Source: Hoeflea marina
GTDB lineage: Bacteria > Pseudomonadota > Alphaproteobacteria > Rhizobiales > Rhizobiaceae
Direction of reading: 5' to 3'
Assembly: GCF_003182275.1 (NCBI RefSeq)
Contig: NZ_QGTR01000001.1
Coordinates: 124,001-188,000 of the forward strand
DNA: 64,000 bases
A program made the position numbers and the translations under genes. Shown here piece after piece: positions 35,903 to 62,785 of this stretch (its first letter is position 1; each line of letters starts with the position of its first letter). Below the pieces are notes generated by a model. It was not told where the DNA came from. It did not search any database and saw only the letters and a list, made by a program, of their open reading frames with translations.

Positions 35903-37114
35903 TCAGAAATCGCTCGCGGAGAATTTGCGCTCAACGTCGAGCAAATACGTGAATGGAGAAGCGCGACGTGCCTTGTTTCGCGCAAGATGCGTTTTCACGG
36001 ATACGTCTGTGACCGCAATCGCTGCCCCTGCGGCGAGCAACGTCGTGCCAGTCAAACCGGTGAAATATGCCAGTGCTCCGCCTGCGGGTACGGAGACCGT
36101 GACGGCGCGCTGAACACCCTCCCAAACGGATTGGATCGAGTTGTCTTTCAATTCGCTTCTCAACGCCTCCAACTTCGGGCGAATTCGCCGTTTATAGACT
36201 TGCTTCGCCTTCTCCTCGAGTTCCTTACCGGTTTCACAGGCGCCGATCTTGGAAGAGAGCTCCTCGAAATGCCCAGATAGCTCCGCCAGTTGAACTGCGC
36301 GCGCACGCCGGAAGTCCAGCAGCTTATCGACCCGTGTTGCCGGATCGACGCGAAGCGCCTCCATGACGAATGAGATAAGTGCTCCCTTCTTTTCTGACTC
36401 CGACGAAGGTTTCACATCATCCAGTAACGTGTGAAGGTTCACGCCCATTGCAGGCTCTTCATTCGTCAGCGCCGCTAGCTCCGTTTCCTTGGACAGCAAG
36501 GCAGCAAGAGCAGCCATGTAGACTTCAGCAAACAGGCTATCGACAAGCAGCCATTCGCCGTCGTTGTTGAAACGCCGATTGGCGTGATGAACGATGTCCT
36601 CTAAATGCCGGGACATTTTTCCGGGATGCATTGCGACAAACCGCATCTCCTCAAAATGGTCACGTAAACCAGGGTCGATCTTGCCCCGATGCATGTGCGC
36701 CAAACCAGTTCGCATCGCGAGGCTCCTGAGCGCTGGCGAGAGCTTTTCAGGATGTATATGGGCGTACCTGAACTGATCGCGAATATTCATGCCAATCTTG
36801 TCCGCGTGCATCAGCGCGTAGCGATTGGGGTCCCGGCCCATTCGGTTGGAGTCCAAGTCTCGTCGGAAGAAGCCACTGTCCATCAGGCCAACCACCCGTT
36901 TGCCGAGAACGTCAAGCAGATCGGGATGAAGGTCGCATCTCAACGGCTCAATGAACCCTTCGCGCCAGAGCATGTTAGTGTCGGCGTTCTGATATGGCTG
37001 ATTAATGGCACGCGGTGCGATCGTCTTAATTTCGTCCCAGAACAGAATTGCTGAGCGCAACCAAGTGCTGTCATGAATATCAATGTGAGGATAATAAAGC
37101 GCAGACCCCAACAC
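35903..37114 (-). CDS. orphan protein of unknown function with C-terminal membrane hairpin
   Basis: A 403-residue protein whose DNA has clearly lower G+C than its neighbours, which suggests horizontal transfer. It opens LGSALYYPHIDIHDSTWLRS followed by AILFWDEIKTIAPR, a start reminiscent of DUF6236-type proteins (weak recollection). The middle is helical and charged, with a predicted coiled coil near residues 275-330, and residues about 345-380 are hydrophobic (AYFTGLTGTTLLAAGAAIAV), forming one or two membrane segments. It is alone on its strand in the island, without transposase, toxin or nuclease neighbours. A stand-alone defence or stress function is possible but only a guess. Confidence 0.75.
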   Translation of the reverse strand: MLGSALYYPHIDIHDSTWLRSAILFWDEIKTIAPRAINQPYQNADTNMLWREGFIEPLRCDLHPDLLDVLGKRVVGLMDSGFFRRDLDSNRMGRDPNRYALMHADKIGMNIRDQFRYAHIHPEKLSPALRSLAMRTGLAHMHRGKIDPGLRDHFEEMRFVAMHPGKMSRHLEDIVHHANRRFNNDGEWLLVDSLFAEVYMAALAALLSKETELAALTNEEPAMGVNLHTLLDDVKPSSESEKKGALISFVMEALRVDPATRVDKLLDFRRARAVQLAELSGHFEELSSKIGACETGKELEEKAKQVYKRRIRPKLEALRSELKDNSIQSVWEGVQRAVTVSVPAGGALAYFTGLTGTTLLAAGAAIAVTDVSVKTHLARNKARRASPFTYLLDVERKFSASDF

Positions 37115-45217: not shown

Positions 45218-46198
45218 TTGGATACGACCGCCAGGATAGTCGGGATATTTCGTGACGAGATGCGCCTTCCGGCCGTTTCGGCCGATGGCAATTTCTTCGA
45301 TCTCGGCGGCGATTCGCTGATGGCGGAAAACATCATCCTCGCCGTGCAGGAGGCCTTCGCGGTCAAGCTGCAGACCTCGGTGCTGCTCAAGGCATCGACG
45401 CCGCGCGACCTGGCGGCCGTGGTGCAGGGGCAGAGACATGCCGGCGACCTGTCGCGTCTGGTCACCGAGATTTCCGGCGGGACGGAGAAGCCGGCTATGG
45501 TGATGGTGCACGGCATGGGAGGCAGTTCGCTGTTTGCCAACCGGCTCGATGACACCATCCGCTCCCGGGCGCGCATCCTCGCCATGCGCGGCATGGGTCT
45601 GGGGGAAGGGGAAGCGCCGCTCGACGATGCCGACGAGATCAGCGGCCTCTATCTCGACGCGGCCAGGTCTTACGCCGGGCAGACGCCGAACATCTTCGGC
45701 GGCATCTGCGTCGGCGGACTGATCGCGCTCACCATGGGCCTCAAGGCGCAGACCGAATCGGGCAAGCGGCCGCAACTGGTGCTCATTGATCCGCCGCCGC
45801 TCGGCTCCCTCTGGCTCAAGCCTGTCAAGGCGGGCCGTGATGCCAAAGCCCGTCGCGGCAGCCTTGACCGACAGGTGCGGTTCTGGCGCGCCGTGTCGCG
45901 CGTCTGCGAGCGCTTTGGCCTCGGCCGCTCGGTGATCGGCCGCAAGGCCCGGCGCGAGAATTTCAAGAAATCCCTGACCCGCGCCTTTGCCGGCTTCACC
46001 CCGGCCTCCTATCCCTGCGACGTGCTGCTGGTCGCCAGTTCGCAGTGGGGCGAGACCACGCTCGCCGATTACCAGAAGTGGCTCGGGCCCGAAGCCTCGA
46101 TCCGCACGGCGGTGATGCCGGGCCAGCACCGCGATTTCCAGCGGGTCAACCGCGACCGGATCAACGCGACGATTCGGGAATTCCTCGGACTGGAATGA
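45218..46198 (+). CDS. stand-alone carrier protein-thioesterase didomain with cysteine nucleophile
   Basis: A 326-residue protein joining a peptidyl/acyl carrier domain to a type I thioesterase, with no condensation, ketosynthase or adenylation domain. The carrier motif FFDLGGDSLMAE puts the phosphopantetheine on Ser33. The alpha/beta-hydrolase thioesterase occupies about residues 85-326 and starts PAMVMVHGMGGSS; its nucleophile elbow reads GGICVGG, so Cys164 replaces the usual serine, with Asp in LVLIDPPP and His in PGQHRDFQ completing the triad. Start TTG 45218 keeps the conserved carrier N terminus, with GGGA nearby. One base separates its stop from the AMP ligase ATG. A carrier-bound acyl group loaded by the ligase is presumably released or cyclised here; the product is unknown. 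Confidence 0.87.
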   Translation: MDTTARIVGIFRDEMRLPAVSADGNFFDLGGDSLMAENIILAVQEAFAVKLQTSVLLKASTPRDLAAVVQGQRHAGDLSRLVTEISGGTEKPAMVMVHGMGGSSLFANRLDDTIRSRARILAMRGMGLGEGEAPLDDADEISGLYLDAARSYAGQTPNIFGGICVGGLIALTMGLKAQTESGKRPQLVLIDPPPLGSLWLKPVKAGRDAKARRGSLDRQVRFWRAVSRVCERFGLGRSVIGRKARRENFKKSLTRAFAGFTPASYPCDVLLVASSQWGETTLADYQKWLGPEASIRTAVMPGQHRDFQRVNRDRINATIREFLGLE

Positions 46199-46199
46199 G

Positions 46200-47684
46200 A
46201 TGATGATTCCGCAGGCAGGCCGGCTTGCGGCCATCGGAACGCTGTTGCATGCCAATCTTGCCGCGCGCCACGATTCGATTGTCGTGGAGACGGCGGAGCG
46301 CGCATTCACCGGCGCCGATCTGCTCCGGCGCAGCGCGGGCGTTGCCAGGGTGCTTGCCGAGAACGGCCTTTCCCGGGGAGACAGGGCGCTGTTCTTCCTG
46401 GTGGGCAACGAGGACGCGCTGGTCTGCAGCCTGGCCTGCTGGTGGCTCTGCGCCACGCCCGTGCTGATGGATTTCCGCAGCCCGGCCGCCCAGCGCCGCC
46501 GGATCGCCGAACTGCTCGGCGCGCGCCTGATCGTCGAGCAGCGCCGCCCGTCGGGCGAGGAGCAGTATGAAAGCCTGATCTGGAACGAGACCTGGTGCGA
46601 GCGACCGGCCTGGGACGCGCCCTGGCCGCAGCAGGACGACCTCGACGCGGTCCCGGCCTTCATGTCGCTGTCCTCCGGCACCACGGGACTGCCCAAGGCC
46701 TATGTCCATTCCCATCAGCGCTCCACCGGACGCGTGCTCGATCGCGAATCGACAGGCGAGAGCACGGGGGGGCTGATCTTCACGCCGATGAACCTGTCCT
46801 TCGCCGCCACGCGCAACATGGTCATGGCGGGGCTTCACTACGGAGCCAGGATCCGCTTTGCCTCGCCGCTGTTCAGCGCCGGCGAACTGGTCGAGATGAT
46901 CGCCGCCAGCGGCGCCACCGCCTGCGCGCTGCCGCCGCCGCTGATCCGCAATCTGGCGCGCGAGGTCGGCGAGCGCTCCACCCCGTTCTTCGATCGGCTG
47001 GTCATGTTGCGCAGCATTGGCGGACCGGCCTCGGCCGAGGACAAGCTCGAGGCCTATACCAGGCTCAGCCGCGGCTACGTGATGACCTATGCCTCCGGGC
47101 TCACCGGCACGGCGACGCAACTCGGCGGACCGGACCTGCTTTCCCATACGGCGAGTGTCGGCCGCCCGCTGCGCACCGTGCGCATCGAGATCGTCGATCC
47201 CGAGACGCTACGGCCGCTGGGCACCGGTCAGGCCGGACTGATCCGGGTCTGGACGCCAAACCTCGCCGACGACGTCATCGAGGCGGCCGAGGGCGCGCCC
47301 AACACCGAGCGCTGGGGCGAGGGCTGGGGCATTCCCGGCGATTTCGGCCGGCTCGACGCGGAGGGCTATCTCACCATCGTCGGCCGCGAGGCAGACATGA
47401 TCGTGCGCGGCGGCGTGAACGTCGCCCCGCAGGAGATCGAGAACCTGCTGCGCAAGGACCCTCGGATTGTCGATGTCGGCGTGGTCGGCATCGACGACCC
47501 CGCCTATGGCCAGGAGATCGCCGTCTTCATCGTCGCCGAGAGCGGCGAGGAGGCGGACTTCCATGTGCTGTGCATGAGCCTGCTGGCCTCCGACCGCCGG
47601 CCGCGCATCATCCGCCTGGTCAAGCGCCTTCCCTACAACGCCAACGGCAAGCTGGTGCGCAACGAGCTGCGCGCCATGCTCTGA
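46200..47684 (+). CDS. AMP-forming acyl ligase (ANL superfamily), copy 1
   Basis: A 494-residue adenylate-forming enzyme. It has the P-loop SLSSGTTGLPKAYVHSH (from about residue 156), the A5-type MTYASGLTG, the hinge region GREADMIVRGGVNVAPQEIE and the C-terminal catalytic lysine in RLPYNANGKLVRNEL. The protein activates a carboxylate to the acyl-AMP and most likely passes it to the Ser33-pantetheine of the preceding carrier protein, with which it is co-transcribed (1-base gap). CoA as acceptor is the alternative. It is a paralogue of the ligase at 49350, sharing length and many blocks such as YESLIWNE and DFRSPA. Confidence 0.9.
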   Translation: MMIPQAGRLAAIGTLLHANLAARHDSIVVETAERAFTGADLLRRSAGVARVLAENGLSRGDRALFFLVGNEDALVCSLACWWLCATPVLMDFRSPAAQRRRIAELLGARLIVEQRRPSGEEQYESLIWNETWCERPAWDAPWPQQDDLDAVPAFMSLSSGTTGLPKAYVHSHQRSTGRVLDRESTGESTGGLIFTPMNLSFAATRNMVMAGLHYGARIRFASPLFSAGELVEMIAASGATACALPPPLIRNLAREVGERSTPFFDRLVMLRSIGGPASAEDKLEAYTRLSRGYVMTYASGLTGTATQLGGPDLLSHTASVGRPLRTVRIEIVDPETLRPLGTGQAGLIRVWTPNLADDVIEAAEGAPNTERWGEGWGIPGDFGRLDAEGYLTIVGREADMIVRGGVNVAPQEIENLLRKDPRIVDVGVVGIDDPAYGQEIAVFIVAESGEEADFHVLCMSLLASDRRPRIIRLVKRLPYNANGKLVRNELRAML

Positions 47685-47704
47685 CCCTTCGTCCGGGAGC
47701 CGAC

Positions 47705-47727
47705 CGGCGGCCTCGGCCAGGCCGCCG
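47705..47727. terminator. hairpin between convergent ligase and TctC genes
   Basis: CGGCGGCCT and AGGCCGCCG form a 9-base-pair stem with a 5-base loop in the 46-base gap between convergent stops. No T-run; probably bidirectional. Confidence 0.5.
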
Positions 47728-47730
47728 CGG

Positions 47731-48744
47731 TCAGCGGCTGAGTTCCGCCGCGCGCTCGACGGTTGCCGTGTCTGCGGCGGTTATCGCCCGGACCGTCTCC
47801 GCCACGTCGGTACCGGGTTTCGACGCGATGTCCGAATGCCGCTTGCGCGCTTCCTCGAGAACCCTGGGGTCGGCGACCATCGCGTCGAAGGCCTTCCGGA
47901 ATTCGGCCACCGTGGCCTCCGGCGTTCCCGGCGGCAGGAAGATCGGCAGCTGGAATTTCAGGTGGCTGGTCAGAAGTTCGGCCGCGGCCCGGTCCCGAGG
48001 CTCTTCGATCCGCTCGACGAAATTGGGGATGTCCGCGATCTCCGGCGGGACCTTGTAGGCCCATTGCGCGACGATGCGCTGGCTGCGCTCGGAGTTGGCC
48101 TGGATGAAGGAGGAGAGCGTGATGCCGCACCAGCCCTCGATCTCGCCGCGGTCCATGGCGATGTTGACCTCCGGCGCGGTCTTGAAGCCGGTGATGACGG
48201 TGTAGCGGGCGCCCAGTGTCTGCTTGATCATGTTGGCCAGCATGTAGCTGCCGCTGGCCTTTCCCGTCGAGCCGAGGATGACGTCGGCCTCGAGCAGGTC
48301 GTCGGCAGTCCGGATGGCGCTGTCCTTGCGCACCACGCAGAGCAGCGGCGTGTCGGCGAGGCTGCCGATCCAGTGGAACGCATTGGGGTCGAAGTCGGCG
48401 GTCGCCGGGTCGGTGACGGTCGCCACCATCACCGACGGATTGACGAGGCCGAACACCGAGCCGTCGCCGGGTTCGGTGGCCGCCATCATCTTGGCGAGCT
48501 TCAGGCTGCCTGCGCCCTCCACATACTGGACCACGATGCCGGGATTGCCGGGCAGGTGGGCGCCGAGATTTTCGGCCACCAGTTGCGCCATGGCGCCGTA
48601 GCTGCCTCCCGGCCCGAACCCGACCTTGAGGGTGACCGGGTCGGCGGCGAGGGCGTTTCCGGCGATGGCCGGGAAAGCTGCGGCCAGGACCGTGGCCGCC
48701 AGGCCGGTGCGGAGGGCATGGCAGGTATTCCGGATCAGTCTCAT
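47731..48744 (-). CDS. TctC/Bug-type tricarboxylate transport substrate-binding protein, paralogue 1
   Basis: A 337-residue periplasmic binding protein with a Sec signal peptide ending about ALAA (residue 34). The mature start TLKVGFGPGGSYGAMAQLVA and GIVVQYVEGAGSLKLAKMMA are the ligand-cradling segments of the Bug/TctC family, whose members bind carboxylates through backbone amides. GFKTAPEVNIAMDRGEIEGWC is shared with the three paralogues at 52.8-56 kb. It is convergent with ligase 1 and separated from the permease gene by ligase 2, so it may be regulated separately. Confidence 0.88.
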   Translation of the reverse strand: MRLIRNTCHALRTGLAATVLAAAFPAIAGNALAADPVTLKVGFGPGGSYGAMAQLVAENLGAHLPGNPGIVVQYVEGAGSLKLAKMMAATEPGDGSVFGLVNPSVMVATVTDPATADFDPNAFHWIGSLADTPLLCVVRKDSAIRTADDLLEADVILGSTGKASGSYMLANMIKQTLGARYTVITGFKTAPEVNIAMDRGEIEGWCGITLSSFIQANSERSQRIVAQWAYKVPPEIADIPNFVERIEEPRDRAAAELLTSHLKFQLPIFLPPGTPEATVAEFRKAFDAMVADPRVLEEARKRHSDIASKPGTDVAETVRAITAADTATVERAAELSR

Positions 48745-49349
48745 TGCATTTCACCTCTTCGGTCTGGAAATGAAGGAACCGGGATTCAGGTTCTGGGAGT
48801 TGTCTGCTGGACGATCAGACGATCTCGGGCTGTGCGTTATGGCATGGCACGCAGCGCCATGGTGCGCCGGGCGGTTCGGCCCGAAGCGCCCCTGACGCAG
48901 GTCCCGCGGCTTTCCCTGTGCGAACATGGCGCGCGCCGGAACCCGCCCGGAATTGACGCCTCGACGATTCTCGGGCGCGCGATGAACGGGCCGATCCTCC
49001 GGCGGGGCGGTACGGACTGTGGCAATGTGGAGGACAGGCAGGAAATGAAGGCACGACATCCTCGGTGATCGGCTCGGAGGGCTCCGCCATTATGCAGCGG
49101 CGAGCAGCCGATGTCACCTGGCCCGAGATCCGGAAGCAGCCCTCCTGCATACTGGATCCGTTCCTGACTTCTTGCAACCGCTGAGGGAATAGCGCATATG
49201 CGCCCTCGGAAAGCGGCGGGATGGGTGTTACGGCTTCCGCCTTCCCGGCGCCATCAGGCTCGCGGCAGCTCTGCCCCGAGCAGCGCGTCTTTCCGGCGGT
49301 GCAGGACGGCCGCCGGATGCAACGATCCGTATGCTGGAGTTTGATAGAG
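48745..49349. promoter_or_regulatory. divergent promoter region of TctC paralogue 1 and ligase 2
   Basis: About 600 bases between the starts of the minus-strand binding protein and plus-strand ligase 2. I see no supportable gene; open frames in it are Arg/Pro-rich and lack ribosome-binding sites. No clear operator was recognised. Confidence 0.4.
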
Positions 49350-50834
49350 ATGGAATTTGCAGCACAGACCGAAGATGCCGGCCTGGGGACAAGGCTGTAC
49401 CGCGCGCTGTCGGCGCGCAGCGGCGATGTCGTGGTCGAGACCGCGGAGCGCATGTTCACCGGCGCCGATCTGCTGCGCCGCGCCGCCGGCGTCGCCCGCG
49501 TGCTGTCCGCCGCCGGTCTGGGCAAGGGCGGCCGGGCCGTCATCTGCCTGCCGGCCGGCGATGATGCGCTGACCTGCATTCTGGCCTGCTGGCATCTGGC
49601 GGCGACACCGGTGCCGATGGATTTCCGCAGCCCGGCGGGGCAGCGCCGGCAGATCTCAGAGCTGGTCGGGGCGCATGTGGTCGTCGAGCCGCGCCGGCCG
49701 GCCGGCGCCGAGGGGTATGAGAGCCTGATCTGGAACGAGGCCTGGTGCGAGGGAGCCGCTGTCGATGCGGCGTACGCGTCGAACGCCGAATTGAACGACG
49801 TGCCGGCCTATCTGGCGTTCTCGTCCGGCACCACCGGGCTGCCCAAGACATATGTCCAGTCCCACCGGCGCATGGCCGGCCGGATGCTGGTTCGGCTGGC
49901 GAGCAGGGAAACGGCAGGGGCGCGAAGTTTCACGCCGATGACGCTGGCCTTTTCCGCCACCCGCAACATGGTGACCGGCGCGTTGCTGTCCGGCGGCGTG
50001 GTCCGCTTCGGTCCGCCGCTGTTCAGCACCGGTGAGCTCATCGAGATGATCGACGCCAGCCGGGCCAGCGTGGTGGCGCTGCCGCCGCCGCTGATCCGCA
50101 ACATGCTCCGTGAAATCGGACCCCGGTCGACGCCCTATTTTTCCCGGCTGAGTTCCTTGCGCAGCATCGGCGGGCCGGCCTCGGCCGAGGACAAGATCGG
50201 CGCCTACACCCATCTCTCCAACGGCTACCTGATGAGCTACGGCACTGGTCTGACCGGCAATGTCTCGCTGCTGTCGGGACCCGACGTGCTCACCCATCCC
50301 CAGACCGTCGGCCGCGCCGTCGCGAGCGTCGGCTTCGAGATTGTCGATCCGGAAACGCTGCGGCCGCTGGGGCGCAATGTTCCGGGCCTCATCAAGATCA
50401 TCACGCCCTGGTTGGCCGACGATGTCATCGAGGACGTCCGCCCGGGCGCCATTGCCGAGCGGCGCGGCGAAGGCTGGGGCATTCCGGGGGACGTCGGCAT
50501 GCTGGACGACGAGGGCTTCCTGACGATCCTAGGTCGCGAGGCCGACATGATCGTGCGCGGCGGCGTCAATGTCGCGCCGCAGGAAATCGAGAACCTGCTG
50601 CGCCGTGACCCGCGGATCACCGATATCGGGGTCACCGGCATCGACGATCCGTCCTATGGCCAGGAGATCGCCGCCTTCATCGTGGCGGCCAGCGGCGAGG
50701 AGGCGGATTTCCACGCGCTTTGCATGCAGCTCCTGTCCTATGACCGTCGCCCGCGCATCATCCGTCTCGTCAGTCGGCTGCCCTACAACGTCAACGGCAA
50801 GCTGCTGCGCGGCGAGCTTGCGGCGATGCTGTAG
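49350..50834 (+). CDS. AMP-forming acyl ligase (ANL superfamily), copy 2
   Basis: A 494-residue paralogue of the ligase at 46200 with the same motif set: AFSSGTTGLPKTYVQSH, MSYGTGLTG, GREADMIVRGGVNVAPQEIE and RLPYNVNGKLLRGELAAML. Differences cluster in the acyl-pocket half (for example TPMTLAFSATRNMVTGALLS against TPMNLSFAATRNMVMAGLHY), which would fit a different carboxylate. It stands alone on its strand; its end is 24 bases from the convergent permease stop. GGAG lies 10 bases before ATG 49350; an upstream in-frame ATG would add about 43 unrelated residues. Confidence 0.9.
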   Translation: MEFAAQTEDAGLGTRLYRALSARSGDVVVETAERMFTGADLLRRAAGVARVLSAAGLGKGGRAVICLPAGDDALTCILACWHLAATPVPMDFRSPAGQRRQISELVGAHVVVEPRRPAGAEGYESLIWNEAWCEGAAVDAAYASNAELNDVPAYLAFSSGTTGLPKTYVQSHRRMAGRMLVRLASRETAGARSFTPMTLAFSATRNMVTGALLSGGVVRFGPPLFSTGELIEMIDASRASVVALPPPLIRNMLREIGPRSTPYFSRLSSLRSIGGPASAEDKIGAYTHLSNGYLMSYGTGLTGNVSLLSGPDVLTHPQTVGRAVASVGFEIVDPETLRPLGRNVPGLIKIITPWLADDVIEDVRPGAIAERRGEGWGIPGDVGMLDDEGFLTILGREADMIVRGGVNVAPQEIENLLRRDPRITDIGVTGIDDPSYGQEIAAFIVAASGEEADFHALCMQLLSYDRRPRIIRLVSRLPYNVNGKLLRGELAAML

Positions 50835-50858
50835 CGGGAGCGGCCGCCACTGGACGGA

Positions 50859-52814
50859 TCAGAACCAAAGCAGCGGCCGCGGCCAGGGAACCGATATCAG
50901 CCAGCCGAAGATCCCGTAGCTCAGCGCCGTCGTTGACAGTGCGGCGATGACAGCCGCCGCCCGGCCGGTGGGCTGTTCGGCAAGCCTGTTGCGCGACCAG
51001 ATCACGGTGAGCACGAAGATCGGCACGGCCACCACCAGTCCGGCGAGCATCACCAGGCTGGCAAAGAGCACGCAATGAACCGGCACCAGCATGCGTTTCA
51101 TGGTCTCGTTGCGGCGGGCCAGCCGCGCCGTCGCGTCAGAAGCCCAGGGTGCCCGCGGCCGGTCGCGCAGGAACATCTGCCAGGCGAGCGCGGCGACCAC
51201 CACAAGCAGCAGGATGGCGGTGAACGTCGGAAACCGCCGCGCCCCGTCCGGCATGGACCAGGTGTCGACGATCACGAAGATGCAGGCAGCGCTCAGCAGC
51301 GCGATCGCCACCATGTCGGAAATCCTGTGGGCGCCAGGCGCGCTGGCAGCGCGGCGCGCGCGCCGCCAGGCCAGCGTCTTGCGGATGGCGAAGGCGCCGC
51401 CGAGAAGGATCAGAGCCTGGATCGACGGTCGGTAGATCCAGTCGGTGCCGACGATCTGGTAGGACAGGAAGAAATAGCGCTCGATGCTGGGGCCGAGCAC
51501 GAATCCCAGCGAGAACGCCGCCCGCGGCCAGTTGCCCTGCGCCATGAAGTGGCCGAGGATTCCGAAGCCGACCAGCACAACGATGTCGGCGAAGCTCGCA
51601 TGGGTCTGGAACGCGCCGAGCGTGACGAACACCAGCGCGACCGGAATGATGATCGTGCTCGGCAGCAGCGCGATGCGCGCCAGCGGGTTGGTCAGGCCGA
51701 GGCACAGCGAGGCACCCAGGATGTTGGCCAGCGCCACGAACAGGATCAGCGAATAGGTGATGGGAAGATTGGTGGTCATCATCGCGGGACCCGGCACCAG
51801 GCCCTGCACCATGAAGGCGCCGAGCAGGATGCTCATCGTCGCCGACCCCGGCAGGCCGAAGGCGATGGTCGGGATCAGCGAGCCGCCTTCCTTCGCGTTG
51901 TTGGCGCTTTCCGGCCCGATCACGCCGCGGATGTTGCCTTCGCCGAACTCCGGTCCACCCTTGCGGTCGCGCTTGGCCATGCCGTAGGCGACCCATTCGA
52001 TCACCGGCAGGCCGATGCCGGGAATGGCGCCCAGCATCGAGCCGAGGGAACTGCACTGCAGCACCAGCCTCCATTCCCTGAGCGTGTCCTTGAGGCCGAC
52101 CAGCATCGAGGAGGGGCGCATGGATGCCGTCGCACCCGATATCGAGGTCCGCCGCGACAGGTCCATCAGCGCCGGCAGCCCGAACAGACCCAGGAAGACG
52201 ATGCCGATCGGCAGCCCGTCCCAGAGATACAGGGTGCCGAAGGTGAAGCGGGCGACGGCCGACTGGTCGTCGATGCCGACGAAGGACATCAGCACGCCGC
52301 CCAGGGCGGCGATGACGCCCTTGAGCGGCTGCGGGCCGGCGAGCATCGCCACGAAGAACAGGCCGAAGAGCGATATGGCCAGGAAGTCGGGGGACTTGAG
52401 CAGCAGCATCAGTGGCCGCATCACCGGGATCGACAGCGCCAGCACCAGCGCGCCGAACAGCCCGCCGATCAGCGAGGCGCTGTAGGCGGCGCCGAAGGCG
52501 CGCGCCGCCTGGTTCTGCCGCGCCAGCGGAAACCCGTCCTCCACCGTGGCGATGGCGCCGATGCTGCCGGGCACGCCGATCAGAACCGCGGGGATGGTGT
52601 CGGAGGTGGTGATCACCGAGCCCATGCCGAGCAGCAGGGCGAAGGCGGCGTAGCTGTCCATCGTGTAGGTCAGCGGCACCAGCAGCGCCATGCCGAAAAT
52701 GCCGCCGAGGCCGGGGATGACGCCGATGACCAGCCCGACGACGACGCCGCAGACCAGCATCAGCAGCGTGAAGGGCTCGGTCACTCCGGCAATGGCGGTG
52801 GTCCATGCGTCCAT
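50859..52814 (-). CDS. tripartite tricarboxylate transporter permease, TctA-TctB fusion
   Basis: A 651-residue membrane protein that combines the large and small permease subunits of a tripartite tricarboxylate transporter. Residues about 1-490 are TctA, with the family blocks GVIPGLGGIFGMALLVPLTY, GVPGSIGAIATVEDGFPLAR, GPESANNAKEGGSLIPTIAF and GLPGSATMSILLGA. From about residue 500 on, four more helices follow (MVAIALLSAACIFVIVDTWS onward), the TctB (DUF1468) part. It is energised by the proton or sodium gradient. Three binding-protein genes lie directly upstream on the same strand, so it is the last gene of that group. The cargo is unknown, probably an organic acid. Confidence 0.92.
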   Translation of the reverse strand: MDAWTTAIAGVTEPFTLLMLVCGVVVGLVIGVIPGLGGIFGMALLVPLTYTMDSYAAFALLLGMGSVITTSDTIPAVLIGVPGSIGAIATVEDGFPLARQNQAARAFGAAYSASLIGGLFGALVLALSIPVMRPLMLLLKSPDFLAISLFGLFFVAMLAGPQPLKGVIAALGGVLMSFVGIDDQSAVARFTFGTLYLWDGLPIGIVFLGLFGLPALMDLSRRTSISGATASMRPSSMLVGLKDTLREWRLVLQCSSLGSMLGAIPGIGLPVIEWVAYGMAKRDRKGGPEFGEGNIRGVIGPESANNAKEGGSLIPTIAFGLPGSATMSILLGAFMVQGLVPGPAMMTTNLPITYSLILFVALANILGASLCLGLTNPLARIALLPSTIIIPVALVFVTLGAFQTHASFADIVVLVGFGILGHFMAQGNWPRAAFSLGFVLGPSIERYFFLSYQIVGTDWIYRPSIQALILLGGAFAIRKTLAWRRARRAASAPGAHRISDMVAIALLSAACIFVIVDTWSMPDGARRFPTFTAILLLVVVAALAWQMFLRDRPRAPWASDATARLARRNETMKRMLVPVHCVLFASLVMLAGLVVAVPIFVLTVIWSRNRLAEQPTGRAAAVIAALSTTALSYGIFGWLISVPWPRPLLWF

Positions 52815-52845
52815 CGAAGGGCAGCGCTCCTGAATTGGATGGGGG

Positions 52846-53847
52846 TTATTTGCTGAGTTCGCCGGCCCTGTCTATGACGGCCTTGTCGGCGCCCGTCAGC
52901 GCCCTGACGATCCCGGCGACGGTCTCGCCGGACTTGGCGTTGAGCACGAGCTTGCGACTTGCGGCATCCGCCCGGAAGCCCGGATCGGCCACCATGGCGT
53001 CGAATGCCTTGCGGTAGGTCTCCACGATGTCTGGCGGGGTGCCGGGCGGAAGGTGCAGCGGATGCTGGAAGCGGAGCGTGTCGACGATGAGTTTCGCCGC
53101 CGCATGATCCACCGGGTCGGTGATCAACTCGAGAAAGGACGGAATGTCCTTCATGCTCTCTGGCACCTCAAGTGCCCATTGTCCGATGATGCGGTTGGTC
53201 TGCGACAGGCCTCCGGCAGTGTAGGCGGTCAGCGAATTGCCGCAGCTTCCCGCGATTTCGCCCCGTTCGCTGGCAAGACCGATCTCGGCCAGGCCCTTGA
53301 ATCCCGTCACCAGGCTGAACCTGGCGTGGAGCGCGTTCTTGACCAGCGCCGCCATCACATAGGTGGTGCTGGACTTGCCGCTCGCCCCGAGAATGAAGTC
53401 CCGGCCGAGGAAATCCTCCACGGTCTCGATCGGGCTGTTCCTGCTGACGGTGCAGAGCTGCGGCGAGCCAGACAGGCTGCCGATCCAGCCCAGCGAATTG
53501 GCGTCGAAACTGGCAAGCTCCGGGGTCGAGACGGTGGCGAATGCCACCACGGGATTGATCAGCGCGATGACCGAGCCGTCCTTCGGTTCGGATCCGACCA
53601 TCATCATGGCGAGCTTCAGGCTGCCCGCGCCGTCGACATTCTGGACGACGATGTCGGGATGGCCCGGCAGGAACCCGCCCAGATGCTCCGCCACGAAGCG
53701 GGCCATCAGGTCGTAGCCGCCGCCGGGACCGTAGCCGACCTTCAGCGTCACGCTTCCCTCGGCAAGCGCCGGAGCAGTCAGGACAAGCACGCCGATCGCC
53801 GCCTGGAGCCCGGTCAGCATCGTCTGGAAAAACGAGGATTTCATCAT
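52846..53847 (-). CDS. TctC/Bug-type substrate-binding protein, paralogue 2
   Basis: A 333-residue periplasmic binding protein with signal peptide ending APALAEG, mature start VTLKVGYGPGGGYDLMARFV and the block GFKGLAEIGLASERGEIAGS. In the last block the Cys of paralogues 1 and 4 (GWC) is replaced (GSC, shifted), so the pocket differs slightly. It is 31 bases from the permease and 56 bases downstream of paralogue 3. Start at MMKSSF. Confidence 0.88.
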   Translation of the reverse strand: MMKSSFFQTMLTGLQAAIGVLVLTAPALAEGSVTLKVGYGPGGGYDLMARFVAEHLGGFLPGHPDIVVQNVDGAGSLKLAMMMVGSEPKDGSVIALINPVVAFATVSTPELASFDANSLGWIGSLSGSPQLCTVSRNSPIETVEDFLGRDFILGASGKSSTTYVMAALVKNALHARFSLVTGFKGLAEIGLASERGEIAGSCGNSLTAYTAGGLSQTNRIIGQWALEVPESMKDIPSFLELITDPVDHAAAKLIVDTLRFQHPLHLPPGTPPDIVETYRKAFDAMVADPGFRADAASRKLVLNAKSGETVAGIVRALTGADKAVIDRAGELSK

Positions 53848-53903
53848 ATTCCCGGTGGGTTGGTTGGACGGCCGGCCGGCCGGACGCGGTGCCGACTTTC
53901 CAT

Positions 53904-54899
53904 TTATTGCGCCAGTTCCGCGGCGCGGGCAATGACGGATTTGTCGACGCTGACCAGGGAATCGATGATTTCGGCAACTTTTTCGCCGGGCTTGGGCGAC
54001 AGCTCGATGTTCCGTCCGGCGGCGTCGGCCTGAAACGCCGGATCGGCGACCATGGCGTCGAAGCCGGCACGGTAGGCATCGACCGTCGCCTGCGGCGTGC
54101 CGGGCGGCAGCAGCAGCGGGTTGTCGAAGGCGAGATTGCCGATGACCAGTTCGGCGGCCTTCCTGTCGGCCGCATCCTCGATCAGGTCCAGGAAGGAGGG
54201 GAGGTCCCGGGTCGTCTCGGGGACATTCATGGTCCATTGCCCGACCGGCCGCAGCAGCCCGGTGCCGAGCGCCTGGAACGAGGTCAGCGAATAGCCGCAA
54301 CGCAGTCCGATCTCGCCACGCTCCATTGCCAGGTTGACTTCCGCTCCGCCCTTGAAACCGGTGACCAGCTTGAACCTGCCGCCGAGCGCGTTCCTGAGCA
54401 GCGCGGCCATGACATAGGTTGCGCTGGTCTTGCCGGTCGACCCGGCAATGAGATCGGCGGCGAGAAGCTCCTCGACGCTCCTGACCGGACTCGCATTGGG
54501 AACCACGCACAACGAAGGCGTATCGTTCATGCTGCCGATCCAGTTGAAGGACCGGGCATCGAAATCGGCCAGTTCCGGCCTCGTCACCGTGGCGATTGTC
54601 ACCGAGGAGTTGACCAGGGCGATCACGCTGCCGTCGGCTGCCTCGCTTCCGGCCATCAGCTTGGCCAGCTTCAGGCTGCCGGCGCCGTCGACATTCTCCA
54701 CGACGATGTCCGGACGGCCGGGCAGGAACCCGCCGAGATGGTCGGCCACCAGGCGGCCGACGGCGTCATAGCCGCCGCCGGGCGCATAGCCGATCTTCAG
54801 GGTCACCGCTCCCTCGGCCCACGCCGGACCGGACAGAAAAAGCAGGGCGAGGGATGCCCGCAGGCTGGAGCGCATCATTTCCTGGAGGCTTGTCGTCAT
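53904..54899 (-). CDS. TctC/Bug-type substrate-binding protein, paralogue 3
   Basis: A 331-residue binding protein with signal peptide ending SGPAWAEG, mature start VTLKIGYAPGGGYDAVGRLV, NVDGAGSLKLAKLMAGSE and GFKGGAEVNLAMERGEIGLR. In-frame ATG codons at 54911 and within ten codons after 54899 make the exact start uncertain. Middle gene of the three tandem binding-protein genes. Confidence 0.87.
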   Translation of the reverse strand: MTTSLQEMMRSSLRASLALLFLSGPAWAEGAVTLKIGYAPGGGYDAVGRLVADHLGGFLPGRPDIVVENVDGAGSLKLAKLMAGSEAADGSVIALVNSSVTIATVTRPELADFDARSFNWIGSMNDTPSLCVVPNASPVRSVEELLAADLIAGSTGKTSATYVMAALLRNALGGRFKLVTGFKGGAEVNLAMERGEIGLRCGYSLTSFQALGTGLLRPVGQWTMNVPETTRDLPSFLDLIEDAADRKAAELVIGNLAFDNPLLLPPGTPQATVDAYRAGFDAMVADPAFQADAAGRNIELSPKPGEKVAEIIDSLVSVDKSVIARAAELAQ

Positions 54900-54957
54900 C
54901 GGCTGATCCATCGGTGTGAGGAGGGGAAGGGGCCCGGGCAACGGCGCGCGCGGGGGT

Positions 54958-55956
54958 CTATCTGATGAGCTCCGCCGCCCGGGCCACGATCGCCGGACTG
55001 GCATCGGTCAGCCCTCGGACGATGGCCTCGACGCTTGCGCCATTCTTCGGCGACAGCCGGATATCGCGGCGCAGCGCAGCCTCCACGAATGCCGGGTCGG
55101 CGATCATGGCGTCAAAGGCCCTGCGGTGCGTGTCCACGATGTCGGGCGGCGTGCCAGCCGGCAGGACCAGCGGCAGCTGGAATGCCAGGTAGCCGATGAC
55201 CAGTCCCGCCGCGTCGCGGTCGACCCCATCGGCAATCCGGTCGAGCAGCGCCGGCAAGTCTGCGGTCTCGCCGGATGTCGAGAAGTCCAGGCGTCCGATC
55301 AGCCGCATGGTTCGCTCGGCGCCCGTCGCATGGTAGGAGGTCAGCGACGTGCCGCACCAGCCCTCGATCTCGCCGCGTTCGATGGCCAGATTGATTTCGG
55401 CGCTGCCCTTGAAGCCGGTCACCAGCCTGAAGCGCGCGTGCAGCGAATTCTTCACCAGCGCCGCCATCACATAGCTGGAACTGGCCTTGCCGCTCGCCCC
55501 GAGGAGAAACTCGCCGCCGAGGAACTCGTCCACGCTCGCGATCGCGCTGGCCTTGCCGACCAAGCATACCGTCGGCGAGGCGCTGAGGCTGCCGATCCAG
55601 TTGAGGCTGTTGGCGTCGAAACCGGTGAGCCCCGGGTCGGTCACGGTGGCGATGACCAGCGAGGGATTGATCAGGCCGATGACCGAACCGTCCTTCGGCT
55701 CGGTTCCGGCCAGCATCCTGGCCAGCTTCAGGCTCCCGGCGCCGTCGACATTCTGCACCGCCACCTCGGGATGGCCGGGCAGATGCGCGCCGAGATGCTC
55801 CGCCACGAAGCGGGCGGCCGTGTCGAAGCCGCCGCCGGGACCGTAGCCCACCTTGAGCGTCACCGTCTCGGCCGCGCTGGGCGCGCCGGATATCGCGGTC
55901 AGGCCGAGGGCGATGGCAAGACCGAGGGCGCGCAGGAGATGTATCGAATCCGCCAT
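54958..55956 (-). CDS. TctC/Bug-type substrate-binding protein, paralogue 4
   Basis: A 332-residue binding protein with signal peptide ending APSAAE, mature start VTLKVGYGPGGGFDTAARFV and GFKGSAEINLAIERGEIEGW. It is the first gene of the minus-strand group paralogue 4 - 3 - 2 - permease and is divergent from the dehalogenase-like gene, so the 123 bases between 55957 and 56079 must carry both promoters. Confidence 0.88.
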   Translation of the reverse strand: MADSIHLLRALGLAIALGLTAISGAPSAAETVTLKVGYGPGGGFDTAARFVAEHLGAHLPGHPEVAVQNVDGAGSLKLARMLAGTEPKDGSVIGLINPSLVIATVTDPGLTGFDANSLNWIGSLSASPTVCLVGKASAIASVDEFLGGEFLLGASGKASSSYVMAALVKNSLHARFRLVTGFKGSAEINLAIERGEIEGWCGTSLTSYHATGAERTMRLIGRLDFSTSGETADLPALLDRIADGVDRDAAGLVIGYLAFQLPLVLPAGTPPDIVDTHRRAFDAMIADPAFVEAALRRDIRLSPKNGASVEAIVRGLTDASPAIVARAAELIR

Positions 55957-56079
55957 GGTTGATGTCCGTGATCGGCTGCAGGACCGCTGTCCTTATGGCT
56001 TATCCGCGCCGTCGTGTCATCATCTGTCGCCGGATATCGGCGCCGCGGAACCTTTGCCCGGCGAGCGGATTGTCTGCGC

Positions 56080-56976
56080 ATGTTCGAAGGATTCAGGCTC
56101 GACAGGGTGGCGCTCTCCGGCGCCGTATTGCAGGTACGCCACGGTGGATCGGGTCCGCCGCTGCTGCTGCTGCACGGCCACCCGCGCACGCATGCCACCT
56201 GGCACAAGGTGGCGCCGATTCTGGCCCGGCACTGCACGGTGGTCTGTCCCGACCTGCGCGGCTTCGGCCGTTCCACCGTGCCGGCCGACCGGCCGGACCA
56301 TGCCGGGTCTTCCAAGCGCGCCAAGGCGCAGGACTGTGTCGAACTGATGCGCACGCTCGGCTTCGACCGCTTTGCCGTCGCCGGCCATGACCGCGGCAGC
56401 GACACCGCCTACCGCACCGCGCTCGACTATCCCGACCACGTCACCGATCTCGTCATCATGGACGGCGTGCCGGTCGTGGAGGCGCTGGAGCGCTGCAACG
56501 AGCGCTTTGCCTCGGCATGGTGGCACTGGTTCTTCTTCGCCCAGCCCGACAAGCCGGAGCGAGCGATCCTGGCCGATCCGGAGCGCTGGTACGGCGCCTC
56601 GCCCGAGCAGATGGGGGAGGAGGCCTATGCCGACTATCTGCGCGCCATCAACGACCCGCATGTGGTCCACGGCATGATCGAGGACTATCGCGCCGGACTC
56701 GCCTTTGACCGTCACATCGACGCGGCCGACCGCGAGGCGGGCCGCCGCATCCGCTGTCCGACCACGGTCCTGTGGTCGCTGCACGACGATCTCGAGTATC
56801 TCTACGGCGACGTGCTGGCGGTGTGGCGTCCGTGGACGACGAAGCTGGCCGGCCGCGGCATCAATTCCGGCCACCACATGGCGGAGGAGGCGCCGGAGGA
56901 GGTTGCCGAGGCCATCCTTGCGGCGCTGTCGCGGCAGCACTTCGCGCGGCGCGCGGCGGAGACGCCGGCGGCGTAG
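56080..56976 (+). CDS. alpha/beta hydrolase of the fluoroacetate dehalogenase family
   Basis: A 298-residue hydrolase that lines up, without gaps over the first 150 residues, with the haloacetate dehalogenase family: nucleophile Asp104 in GHDRG, Arg105, Asp128, halide-site His149 and Trp150 (WWHWFFFAQP) and the base His in SGHHMAEE (about residue 265). Known enzymes hold the substrate carboxylate with two arginines, Arg105 and Arg108 in FAc-DEX FA1 numbering; here position 108 is Asp. Halide-binding residues are kept, but the preferred substrate is probably not simple fluoroacetate. It is divergent from the binding-protein operon, hinting that the imported acid may be halogenated (inference). 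Confidence 0.85.
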   Translation: MFEGFRLDRVALSGAVLQVRHGGSGPPLLLLHGHPRTHATWHKVAPILARHCTVVCPDLRGFGRSTVPADRPDHAGSSKRAKAQDCVELMRTLGFDRFAVAGHDRGSDTAYRTALDYPDHVTDLVIMDGVPVVEALERCNERFASAWWHWFFFAQPDKPERAILADPERWYGASPEQMGEEAYADYLRAINDPHVVHGMIEDYRAGLAFDRHIDAADREAGRRIRCPTTVLWSLHDDLEYLYGDVLAVWRPWTTKLAGRGINSGHHMAEEAPEEVAEAILAALSRQHFARRAAETPAA

Positions 56977-58864: not shown

Positions 58865-61800
58865 TCAGCTGCAGCCGCTCGTGCTTCCGCAGGTGTCGCA
58901 CTTCTCGCAGGTGCCGTTGCGCACCATGGTGAAGTTCTGGCATTCGCCGCACATGTTGCCGGTGTAGCCCTGCATCAGCGACTTGGCGCGGCGGTCGGCG
59001 GCCTTGGCCTTGGCGTCGCGGGCCTCGTCGGCGGCGATGTCGGAGAACAGCGCCTCGGCCTCGCCCTCGACCACCGCGATCTCGGCGGCCAGCACCTCGG
59101 CGCGCTCCTCGTAGTCGCGCTTGAAGGCCACCGGCGCCGTGTCGTCGGCATCGATGTCGAGCGCGGTGACCGGCTTGAGCGCCAGGTTGCCGGACTTCGA
59201 GGCCGGGAACGCCGCCTTGATCACCGAGGCGCCCGAGGAGGGGCCCTGGCCGGCGTGACCCTTGGGCTCGCCCGGGCTCATCGAATTGACCACCTTGAGC
59301 GAGGCGCCGCGGGTCAGGCCCTTGGAGAAGGGCTGCGCCTTGCCCTCGGAAATGCCCTTGCCGAGCGCGGTGTTGCCGAAGTCGGAGGTGTCGACATGGG
59401 CCAGATCGTGGCGTGAGAGGTAGGAGACCGCCAGTTCCCGGAAGATGTAGTCGAGGATCGAGGTGGCGTTCTTGATGGCGTCGTTGCCCTGCACCATGCC
59501 GGCCGGCTCGAACTTGGTGAAGGTGAAGGCCTCGACATATTCCTCCAGCGGCACGCCGTATTGCAGGCCGAGCGAGATGGCGATGGCGAAGTTGTTCATC
59601 ATCGCCCGGAAGGCCGCGCCCTCCTTGTGCATGTCGATGAAGATCTCGCCCAGGCGTCCGTCGTCGAACTCGCCGGTACGGAGATAGACCTTGTGGCCGC
59701 CGATGACGGCCTTCTGGGTGTAGCCCTTGCGGCGGTTGGGCAGCTTCTCGCGGTCGCGATAGAGCCGGTCGATGACCCGCTCGACGATCTTCTCGGTGAC
59801 GGCAACCGCCTGGGCGGCAATCGGCATCTCGGCGAAGGCCTCGGCTGCGTCATCCTCGTCCTCGTCGTCCTCGATCAGCGAGGAGTTGAGCGGCTGGCTG
59901 AGCTTGGAGCCGTCGCGGTAGAGCGCGTTGGCCTTCAGCGCCAGCTTCCACGACAGCATGTAGGCGTTCTTGCAGTCATCGACGGTGGCCTCGTTGGCCA
60001 TGTTGATGGTCTTGGAGATGGCGCCCGAGATGAAAGGCTGGGCGGCGGCCATCATGCGGATGTGGGATTCGACCGACAGGTAGCGCTTGCCGATCTTGCC
60101 GCAGGGATTGGCGCAGTCGAACACCGGATAGTGCTCGAGCTTGAGATGCGGCGCGCCTTCCAGCGTCATGGCGCCGCAGATGTGGATGTTGGCGGCCTCG
60201 ATGTCCTTCTTCGAGAAGCCGATGGCCGAGAGCATGTCGAAGCTGAAATCGGCCATCTGCTCGTCGGTGAGACCCAGCACGGACTTGCAGAAGTCCTCGC
60301 CCAGCGTCCACTTGTTGAAAACGAACTTGATGTCGAAGGCGGCCTTGGTGGCGCCGTTGAGCGCCTCGATCTTCTCGTCGGTGAAGCCCTTGGCCCTGAG
60401 CGAGCCGGGATTGATGGCCGGTGCCTGGTTGAGGTTGCCGTGGCCCACCGCATAGGCCTCGATCTCGGCGATGTGGGCTTCCGAATAGCCGAGCGTGCGC
60501 AAGGCTTCCGGCACGGCGCCGTTGATGATCTTGAAGTAGCCGCCGCCGGCGAGCTTCTTGAACTTGACCAGCGCGAAGTCGGGCTCGATGCCGGTGGTGT
60601 CGCAGTCCATCACCAGGCCGATCGTGCCGGTGGGGGCGACGACCGAGGTCTGGGCGTTGCGGTAGCCGTGCTTCTCGCCGAGTTCGAGCGCCAGGTCCCA
60701 GGCGCGGGTGGCGTGGGTGATCAGTTCCTGGTCCGGGCAGTCGGCATGGATCAGCGGCACCGGGTTGACGGAGAGGCCCTCGTAGCCCTCCGACAGGCCG
60801 TGGGCTGCCAGGCGATGGTTGCGGATGACCCGCAGCATGTTCTTCTTGTTGTCCTTGTAGCCGGCAAAGGCGCCGATCTCGCCGGCCATTTCGGCCGAGG
60901 TGGCGTAGGCCACGCCGGTCATGATGGCGGTCAACGCGCCGCAGATGGCGCGGCCTTCCCTGGAGTCGTAGGGAATCCCGGTGGTCATCAAGAGACCGCC
61001 GATATTGGCGTAGCCGAGGCCGAGCGTGCGGTACTTGTAGCTGAGTTCGGCGATCTGGCGCGAGGGGAACTGCGCCATCATCACCGAGACCTCAAGCACG
61101 ATGGTCCAGAGCCGGACGGCATGCTCGTAGTCGCCGATGTTGATGCGCTTGGTGTCGGCGTCCTTGAACTGCAACAGGTTGAGCGAGGCGAGGTTGCAGG
61201 CCGTGTCGTCGAGGAACATGTATTCCGAGCACGGATTGGAGGCGCGGATCGGGCCCGCCGCCGGACAGGTGTGCCAGTCGTTCATGGTGGTGTTGAAATG
61301 CAGGCCCGGATCGGCGGACGCCCAGGCGGCGTGGCCGATCTGTTCCCACAGGTCGCGGGCCTTGAGCGTCTTCATCACCTTGCCGTCCTTGCGGGCGGTG
61401 AGGTGCCAGTCGCCGTCGGTTTCCACCGCGCGCAGGAAGTCGTCCTTGATCGACACCGAGTTGTTGGAGTTCTGCCCCGAAACCGTCAGATAGGCTTCCG
61501 AATCCCAGTAGGTGTCATAGGTCTTGAACTCGATGTCGGTGTAGCCCTGGCGGGCGAACTGGATGACGCGCTTGACGTAGTTCTCCGGCACCTGGTCGCG
61601 CTTGGCGGCCTTGATCTCGCGCTTGAGCGCCGGGTTGAGCTTCGGGTCGAAGCAGGCGTCGTTGTCGGCCTCGCAGTTGAGGCAGGCCTTCATGATGGCC
61701 TTGAGGTGGCGGGCGACGATCTTCGAGCCGGTCACGAGTGCCGCGACCTTCTGCTCTTCCTTGACCTTCCAGTTGATGTAGGCCTCGATATCGGGGTGAT

Positions 61801-62656
61801 CGACGTCGACGACGACCATCTTGGCCGCCCGGCGGGTGGTGCCGCCCGACTTGATGGCGCCGGCGGCGCGGTCACCGATCTTGAGGAAGCTCATCAGGCC
61901 CGACGACTTGCCGCCGCCCGAGAGCTTTTCGCCTTCGCCGCGCAGATGCGAGAAGTTGGAGCCGGTGCCCGAGCCGTACTTGAACAGCCGCGCCTCGCGC
62001 ACCCACAGATCCATGATGCCGTTGTCGTTGACGAGATCGTCCTCGACCGACTGGATGAAACAGGCATGCGGCTGCGGGTGCTCATAGGAGGAGAGCGACT
62101 TGGTCAACTTGCCGGTGAACGGATCCATGTAGAAATGGCCCTGGCCGGGACCGTCGATGCCGTAGGCCCAGTGCAGGCCGGTGTTGAACCACTGCGGCGA
62201 GTTCGGCGCCACGCGCTGGGTGGCCAGCATGTAGGCGAGCTCGTCCATGAAGGTGCGGGCGTCTTCCTCGGAATTGAAGTAGCCGCCCTTCCAGCCCCAG
62301 TAGGTCCAGGTGCCGGCGAGCCGGTCGAAGACCTGGCGGGCATCGGTCTCGGGCCCGTAATGCTCCGCGGCGGGGAGGGCGGCGAGCGCCTCCTCGTCGG
62401 CGACCGAGCGCCACAGCCAGGACGGGACCGAATTCTCCTCGACCTTCTTCAGCCGCGCCGGGATGCCGGCCTTGCGGAAATATTTCTGCGCCAGAATGTC
62501 GGCAGCGACCTGGCTGAACTGCACCGGCACATCGATGTTCTCGAGCCGGAAGACCACGGAGCCGTCCGGGTTGCGGATTTCGCTGGTCGCCTTGCGGAAC
62601 GCGATGTCCGCATAGGCTGAGTGTCCGACCTTGGTGAACCGGCGTTCAATGCGCAT
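58865..62656 (-). CDS. nrdJ: vitamin B12-dependent (class II) ribonucleotide reductase
   Basis: It makes deoxyribonucleotides from ribonucleotides using adenosylcobalamin, independent of oxygen. The 1263-residue protein has [13 protein letters not shown], the active-site [39 protein letters not shown], and a C-terminal cysteine-rich tail ([20 protein letters not shown]) with a zinc-ribbon-like set and a final CGSTSGCS for thioredoxin-type reduction. No intein or frameshift is seen. GAGGATATT precedes ATG 62656. Two NrdR-box-like sites lie upstream (62786-62832); no cobalamin riboswitch was recognised. Confidence 0.97.
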
Positions 62657-62785
62657 AATATCCTCGACTTTTTGCCCCGGCCGCCTGCGGTCCTCGCATG
62701 ACGGCACAAAATTTTCCGCAGGCGGCGCACTCATTGCGCAGCCAGTTGTTTACTCGGTCACTCTTGGTGATTCCCGTTTCGGGAA

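What the first reader, a model, noticed from the sequence alone, without database searches (positions are those of the whole stretch)
45218..56976. Uptake and carrier-tethered activation locus: carrier-thioesterase, two ligases, TTT transporter with four binding proteins, dehalogenase-like hydrolase
A stand-alone carrier-thioesterase, two AMP ligases of equal length, a fused TctA-TctB permease, four related TctC proteins and a dehalogenase-family hydrolase lie together in 12 kb with no unrelated gene between them. There is no condensation or ketosynthase domain, so this is not a normal NRPS or PKS. The pattern suggests that an imported carboxylate is adenylated, loaded on the carrier and then released or cyclised. 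The gene set is seen; the pathway is inference. I do not know a described system with this composition.
Basis: partly seen in the sequence, partly recalled or inferred. Interest (0 to 1): 0.78.

Follow-up and report, generated by a model that had tools for sequence, protein, structure and literature searches.

The report
Importer-linked ligase and carrier-thioesterase cassette
A small gene cassette in soil bacteria joins a membrane importer to enzymes that activate a carboxylic acid and hold it on a carrier; related cassettes use other importer types, so it is probably one working unit, but its product is unknown.

Summary
The gene set is real: a carrier/thioesterase didomain (PCP-TE), two paralogous AMP ligases (66% identical), a fused TctA-TctB permease and four TctC paralogues. 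The fluoroacetate-dehalogenase-like hydrolase is real too, but none of 23 related ligase loci carries it. I assembled 19 loci with both PCP-TE and ligase; 16 also have a tripartite, binding-protein-dependent importer of one of four kinds: fused TctAB+TctC (8), TctA with TctC (1), TAXI-TRAP (6), DctP-TRAP (1). The ligase resembles acyl/aryl-acid ligases, not amino-acid adenylation domains. The thioesterase has Cys in place of the usual Ser in 18 of 19 members. Best reading: a split, importer-coupled A-T-TE ('NRPS-like') unit; the imported acid is adenylated, loaded on the carrier and released other than by plain hydrolysis. Substrate, product and co-expression are unproven. Against it: 3 of 19 pairs lack a tripartite importer, three loci have ligase and TctAB without PCP-TE, some ligase cousins sit beside importers in catabolic-looking clusters without PCP-TE, and only AcpS was found as carrier-activating enzyme. 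My searches found no paper on this combination.

The parts
45218..46198 (+). PCP-TE: stand-alone carrier (Ser33) plus thioesterase with Cys164-Asp191-His304; TTG start
   Evidence: Pfam; alignment and triad columns; AF2 model and fold search
46200..47684 (+). LIG1: AMP-forming acid ligase, 494 aa, 1 bp after PCP-TE
   Evidence: Pfam; PDB relatives; AF2 model and fold search; junction
47731..48744 (-). TctC1 solute-binding protein, convergent with LIG1
   Evidence: 22.2 bits to PF03401, below cut-off; 48-49% identical to TctC2-4
49350..50834 (+). LIG2: AMP-forming acid ligase, paralogue of LIG1 (66%); the ORF begins at 49221, the likely start is 49350
   Evidence: Pfam; alignments; start
50859..52814 (-). 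Fused TctA-TctB permease, convergent with LIG2
   Evidence: Pfam TctA 372.7 bits, TctB 38.2 bits
52846..53847 (-). TctC2 solute-binding protein
   Evidence: 22.4 bits to PF03401, below cut-off; 49-58% identical to the other three
53904..54911 (-). TctC3 solute-binding protein (ORF extends to 55004; start at 54911 or 54899 more likely)
   Evidence: Pfam 41.9 bits; starts
54958..55956 (-). TctC4 solute-binding protein
   Evidence: Pfam 28.2 bits
56014..56976 (+). Fluoroacetate-dehalogenase-like alpha/beta hydrolase; neighbour, probably not part of the unit
   Evidence: no match in 23 related ligase loci

Best explanation
The locus is one instance of a recurring, apparently mobile cassette that couples a tripartite importer to a split A-T-TE unit. 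Proposed steps: (1) TctC proteins capture a carboxylate and TctAB imports it (inferred from the family); (2) LIG1 or LIG2 adenylates it (inferred from family and motifs); (3) the acyl group goes onto the phosphopantetheine arm of the PCP domain, in place of or beside CoA (inferred from the close coupling and joint inheritance of PCP-TE and ligase); (4) the Cys thioesterase takes the acyl group and releases it by ring closure, by joining two units, or by transfer to a small acceptor (inferred; plain hydrolysis would be a futile cycle). Shown: gene set, recurrence, four importer kinds, conserved carrier Ser and Cys/Asp/His. Not shown: substrate, product, co-expression, any activity.
For: 16 of 19 PCP-TE+ligase loci carry a tripartite importer of four kinds. 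Of 14 ligase loci found in 394 family genomes, 12 have such an importer beside the ligase, against a mean of at most 9% of the genome within about 5 kb of a TctA or DctM gene and 6 of 54 other AMP-binding genes (the 6 of 54 is a lower bound). Core genes keep their order while flanks change between lineages. PCP-TE and ligase are 1 bp apart in the window and overlap in L104, L078 and L079. Their identities correlate at 0.90 over 171 pairs. In L105 the PCP-TE belongs to another branch than its ligase would predict, as if exchanged with function kept. Carrier Ser in 19 of 19, TE Cys in 18 of 19. Ligase nearest to MenE, MatB and aryl/acyl-acid ligases.
Against: L046, L047 and L048 have PCP-TE+ligase without a tripartite importer found. 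L069, L106 and L080 have ligase+TctAB without PCP-TE in the region; the ligase is frame-broken in L069 and cut short in L080. L103 and L109 have the ligase with neither. Ligase cousins occur beside TRAP or TTT genes without PCP-TE (L156, L157, L169) and in catabolic-looking plasmid clusters, so a CoA-ligase role is possible. The window's genome shows one ACPS-family gene, next to a lepB-like gene, and no Sfp-type transferase above cut-off. L155 has Ser, not Cys.
Confidence: 0.45

Rival explanations
1. Acylation system: the imported acid is loaded on the carrier and the TE transfers it to a saccharide, lipid or other acceptor made elsewhere, so that it decorates something instead of giving a free product.
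For: Without an importer, L046 has PCP-TE+ligase amid polysaccharide-type genes (Wzz, epimerase, nucleotidyl transferase, GT2, GH16). L040 has several PCP-TE genes with a glycosyltransferase-25 and a methyltransferase.
Against: No glycosyltransferase or acceptor gene belongs to the shared core of the importer-linked cassettes.
Confidence: 0.2
2. Catabolic entry: the ligase is an ordinary acyl-CoA ligase for the imported acid and PCP-TE is an accessory, for instance a carrier for a trans-acting tailoring enzyme or an editing thioesterase.
For: Nearest solved relatives are CoA ligases; cousins lie in catabolic-looking clusters beside TctC or ABC genes (5 of the 7 plasmid hits were looked at) and beside importers without PCP-TE (L156, L157, L169).
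Against: No downstream degradation genes in the shared core; PCP-TE and ligase are tightly coupled and co-inherited in 19 loci.
Confidence: 0.2
3. The importer takes back or senses the product rather than supplying the substrate; the ligase works on an acid made in the cell.
For: Not excluded by gene content; solute-binding proteins are duplicated (four in the window, two in L074 and L080).
Against: Four unrelated importer kinds for small acids beside acid ligases fit substrate supply more simply; a TTT/TRAP review describes these importers as taking up carboxylates (PMC5812351, passages).
Confidence: 0.11
4. Coincidence: these genomes hold many tripartite importers and the neighbours are unrelated in function.
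For: The 11 genomes hold 11-74 TctA plus DctM genes each, up to 14% of a genome within about 5 kb.
Against: 12 of 14 loci against a mean bound of 9% (binomial 2.5e-11; 3e-6 even at 25%), though loci are related by descent; same core order in several lineages with different flanks.
Confidence: 0.04

Closest known systems
Non-reducing A-T-TE NRPS-like enzymes (TdiA, MicA, AtqA, BtyA, ApvA, RalA, EchA; PMC5523082, passages)
   Same: Acid-activating domain, carrier and thioesterase with no condensation domain; there the TE is proposed to condense, cyclise and release.
   Different: Here A and T-TE are separate proteins, the ligase is of acyl/aryl-CoA-ligase type, the TE nucleophile is Cys, and an importer belongs to the set. 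Substrate unknown.
Cys-type NRPS thioesterases: ObiF (PMC6668435, passages) and SulM (PMC11298585, passages)
   Same: Carrier-thioesterase pair with Cys nucleophile; both are among the best fold matches of the model.
   Different: Those end multidomain peptide synthetases; this one is free-standing beside a single ligase. Strained-ring formation is only an analogy.
Tripartite tricarboxylate transporters with fused TctAB, and TAXI-TRAP and DctP-TRAP transporters (PMC5812351, passages)
   Same: The importer parts belong to these families by Pfam; the review mentions rare TctAB fusions.
   Different: The passages that I saw do not mention a carrier or thioesterase partner; 'phosphopantetheine' does not occur in that text.
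Free-standing aryl-acid ligases feeding carrier proteins (EntE, PchD type; named in the hit lists)
   Same: Stand-alone acid ligase of the same superfamily, thought to load a carrier in trans.
   Different: Those feed siderophore NRPSs; here there is no condensation domain and an importer is attached.
Catabolic clusters on plasmids with a related ligase (Roseomonas, Rhizobium, Comamonas, Variovorax)
   Same: Related ligase (about 30% identity), often with TctC or ABC genes near by.
   Different: No PCP-TE annotated; amidohydrolase, isochorismatase-family and dehydrogenase genes instead.

Membership tests
A-T-TE NRPS-like enzyme | Adenylating unit, carrier and thioesterase present, no condensation domain | tested here: met
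   Pfam of the locus
A-T-TE NRPS-like enzyme | All three domains in one polypeptide | tested here: not met
   Ligase and PCP-TE are separate genes; so it is not filed as a member, only as working like one
A-T-TE NRPS-like enzyme | Aromatic alpha-keto acid substrate, dimeric product | not testable with these tools
   Needs biochemistry
Tripartite tricarboxylate transporter | TctA and TctB membrane parts | tested here: met
   372.7 and 38.2 bits, both over cut-off, in one protein
Tripartite tricarboxylate transporter | TctC solute-binding protein | tested here: met
   Two over cut-off, two below but 48-58% identical to them
Cys-type strained-ring thioesterase (ObiF-like) | GxCxG nucleophile with Asp and His | tested here: met
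   18 of 19 members; L155 has Ser
Cys-type strained-ring thioesterase (ObiF-like) | Forms a beta-lactone or beta-lactam | not testable with these tools
   Needs biochemistry
Functional carrier protein | Phosphopantetheine Ser in the carrier motif | tested here: met
   19 of 19
Functional carrier protein | A phosphopantetheinyl transferase able to modify it | tested here: inconclusive
   One ACPS-family gene in the window's genome, no Sfp-type above cut-off; the PF17837 model passed its cut-off in only 3 of 14 control genomes
Fluoroacetate dehalogenase (56014-56976) | Asp nucleophile in HDRG and overall family match | tested here: met
   Alignments (role of the Asp recalled)
Fluoroacetate dehalogenase (56014-56976) | Second Arg after the nucleophile (DRGAR) that binds the carboxylate (role recalled) | tested here: not met
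   The five shown relatives read drgar, the window protein drgsd

The most novel reading that the evidence does not exclude
A new class of thiotemplate unit defined by its importer: a free-standing acid ligase and a Cys-type PCP-TE have repeatedly teamed up with unrelated tripartite importers (TTT, TAXI-TRAP, DctP-TRAP) to turn scavenged environmental carboxylates, one importer per acid, into small cyclic, dimeric or strained-ring products without condensation domains.
Probability: 0.4. Interest if true: 0.78.

Novelty: new variant of a known kind. Interest (0 to 1): 0.62.

Why it matters
If true, a family of small-molecule pathways has been overlooked because genome mining leans on condensation and ketosynthase domains. 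The binding proteins give a direct handle: their ligands would point to the acid that each ligase activates, which makes the chemistry testable before the product is known. It would also give tripartite importers a biosynthetic role beside catabolism.

Tried and rejected
Rejected: the hydrolase at 56014-56976 as part of the unit (no match at E 1e-4 in 23 related ligase loci; one 29% match lies 6.7 kb from a TctAB gene in L072, which has no ligase or PCP-TE beside it). Rejected: cydAB upstream as part of it (flanks differ between lineages). Rejected: an amino-acid NRPS (ligase relatives). Left open: a conserved Arg (R205 of LIG1) near the A4 region as a sign of a second acidic group on the substrate; it is present in 16 of 19 ligases and absent in L099, L101 and L104, and its place in the pocket rests on recalled numbering.

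Led nowhere: genome-contig scan with the single PCP-TE; plasmid search with PCP-TE, which returned mostly NRPS annotations; phylum-wide PCP-TE profile, whose hits lie mostly inside long NRPS frames, with G1034 and G365:C142 as shorter ones; class-wide ligase profile: 57 of 289 genomes matched, I fetched 19 ligase regions and one (L155) had PCP-TE plus importer, while L156, L157 and L169 had DctM or TctA within about 6 kb and no PCP-TE found. Promoter and terminator scans gave no more than shuffles. Paper searches: 64, 80 and 113 gave no paper; 81 and 116 nothing relevant; 112 was too broad; one gave a TTT/TRAP review; others gave the thioesterase papers. Of the papers, I saw passages of PMC9047271, PMC6668435, PMC11298585, PMC5523082 and PMC5812351, the whole text of none.

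Searches were made after it; they closed gaps: importer queries had not been run on L046-L048, and TctC1, TctC2, L108, L155 and L077 had not been scanned with Pfam.
Full report
Observation. Two of the four TctC proteins score below the Pfam cut-off and rest on 48-58% identity to the other two. The two ligases are 66% identical and equally long if LIG2 starts at 49350. In a tree the four TctC proteins group together against those of the other cassettes, so they look like duplications within this lineage.

The cassette elsewhere. In ACE_PRO27 one 5.6 kb block holds PCP-TE (40% identical), TctC, TctAB (52%) and a convergent ligase (43%). A scan of named genomes with a three-ligase alignment returned ten loci. 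Seven are close relatives (42-51% identity over the best segment; Mesorhizobium and other Rhizobiales, ACE_PRO27 among them). All seven have TctAB and TctC beside the ligase and six have PCP-TE. The seventh, L080, keeps only a C-terminal part of the ligase, and no PCP-TE was found. The other three of the ten are 27-28% hits in actinobacterial records without the other genes. Outside the core the flanks differ between the window, L039, the L074/L076/L080 group and the L077/L078/L079 group, so the unit seems to move as a block. None of the seven same-genus genomes listed has a ligase match at E 1e-60.

Other importers. LIG1 against 394 family genomes gave 15 matches in 11 genomes, 14 loci. Twelve loci have a tripartite importer beside the ligase. 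Five have fused TctAB: the window, G151, G177:3784858, G523:C53 and G575. Five have TAXI-TRAP: G061, G177:225219, G523:C39, G523:C112 and G564. One (G039) has TctC, a 151-aa ORF in the place of TctB, TctA, ligase and PCP-TE in a same-strand run. One (G634) has overlapping PCP-TE and ligase, then DctP and DctM. The other two (G019, G121) have no PCP-TE beside the ligase; in G121 a Na/H exchanger and a tryptophan-halogenase-like flavoprotein flank it, and G019 has homologues of both. In another part of the class, L155 (G755) has ligase, TAXI protein, DctM and PCP-TE together. In all I assembled 19 loci with PCP-TE and ligase; 16 have a tripartite importer. L046, L047 and L048 show none, though L047 has ABC-importer permease genes and L048 a CitMHS citrate-transporter-family gene about 7 kb away. 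L105 is informative: ligase and transporter are of the TctAB type but its PCP-TE belongs to another branch, as if it had been exchanged while the function was kept. This is a sample drawn from search hits, not a census.

Statistics and their limits. The 11 genomes hold 11-74 TctA plus DctM genes each, so at most about 3-14% (mean 9%) of a genome lies within about 5 kb of one. Twelve of 14 is far above that (binomial 2.5e-11 at 9%, 3e-6 at 25%). The control of other AMP-binding genes gave 6 of 54 in G000 and G177, but only 29 of 46 and 19 of 43 permeases were listed there, so it is a lower bound. Loci are related by descent and not independent; the sounder argument is that importers of unrelated families stand beside the same enzyme pair. 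PCP-TE and ligase identities correlate at 0.90 over 171 pairs, 0.93 without L105, 0 of 5000 permutations as high; linked genes share history, so this shows joint inheritance, not contact.

Anatomy and mechanism. The AF2 model of PCP-TE (mean pLDDT 83.6, seven sequences) is a carrier helix bundle followed by an alpha/beta hydrolase. The best PDB matches are NRPS carrier-thioesterase ends: AB3403 first, EntF, SulM and ObiF1 among the top ten, TM-scores 0.45-0.57 by query length. The carrier Ser is present in 19 of 19, the TE Asp and His in 19 of 19, and the TE nucleophile is Cys in 18 of 19 (Ser in L155). Cys is called less common in the ObiF paper and is required there for beta-lactone formation (PMC6668435, passages); SulM uses Cys too (PMC11298585, passages). 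The ligase model (mean pLDDT 77.3) and sequence match MenE, MatB, feruloyl-CoA and aryl-acid ligases. An acid-activating unit, a carrier and a thioesterase without a condensation domain are the parts of A-T-TE NRPS-like enzymes, whose TE is proposed to condense and release the product (PMC5523082, passages). Here they are split and linked to uptake. The order import, adenylation, loading, non-hydrolytic release is inference.

Against the model. Ligase with TctAB but no PCP-TE in the region exists (L069 frame-broken, L106, L080 cut short). TctAB relatives without the ligase exist (L070-L073). Ligase cousins stand beside importers without PCP-TE (L156, L157, L169) and in catabolic-looking plasmid clusters (five of seven hits viewed), so a CoA-ligase origin is likely and a CoA-ligase function is not excluded. 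The window's genome (96.6% complete) has one ACPS-family gene beside a lepB-like ORF and no Sfp-type transferase above the Pfam cut-off; among ten genomes only G177 shows a clear Sfp-type N-terminal domain, and the model was weak on the controls too.

Literature. Ten searches of the held library were used. Those that combined tripartite-importer terms with carrier, adenylation or thioesterase terms gave no relevant paper. The library lacks most subscription journals and all preprints, so absence from print is not shown.

Verdict. Gene set confirmed; one-system inference well supported for importer, ligase and PCP-TE, not for the hydrolase; chemistry unknown.

Noticed in passing
L040 (G019:C6), 8341-14882: Run of four PCP-TE genes (one scanned with Pfam, the others by homology) with a glycosyltransferase-25 between two of them, a methyltransferase after them and a subtilase before them; the same genome has up to ten PCP-TE-like matches.
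   Followed up: partly
L103 7928-12978 and L109 (G121, G019): Related ligase flanked by a Na/H exchanger and a tryptophan-halogenase-like flavoprotein, no PCP-TE beside it.
   Followed up: partly
G177:C1:1529907-1531723: Another PCP-TE-like match directly before the only clear Sfp-type phosphopantetheinyl transferase domain seen in ten genomes.
   Followed up: no
L069 7796-9409 and L080 9935-10930: Ligase broken by a frame change in one and lacking its N-terminal part together with PCP-TE in the other: the enzyme half may decay while the importer stays.
   Followed up: no
L105 13807-16925 and L047 12093-15172: HlyD-type and ABC-exporter genes near PCP-TE in both loci (33-43% identical between them), a possible export route for a product.
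   Followed up: no
window 35903-37114 (-): ORF with a weak DUF6236 match, below cut-off, in the stretch of lowest G+C of the window (0.583).
   Followed up: no
window 58865-62734 (-): 1289-aa class II (B12-dependent) ribonucleotide reductase with a TSCPD domain.
   Followed up: no
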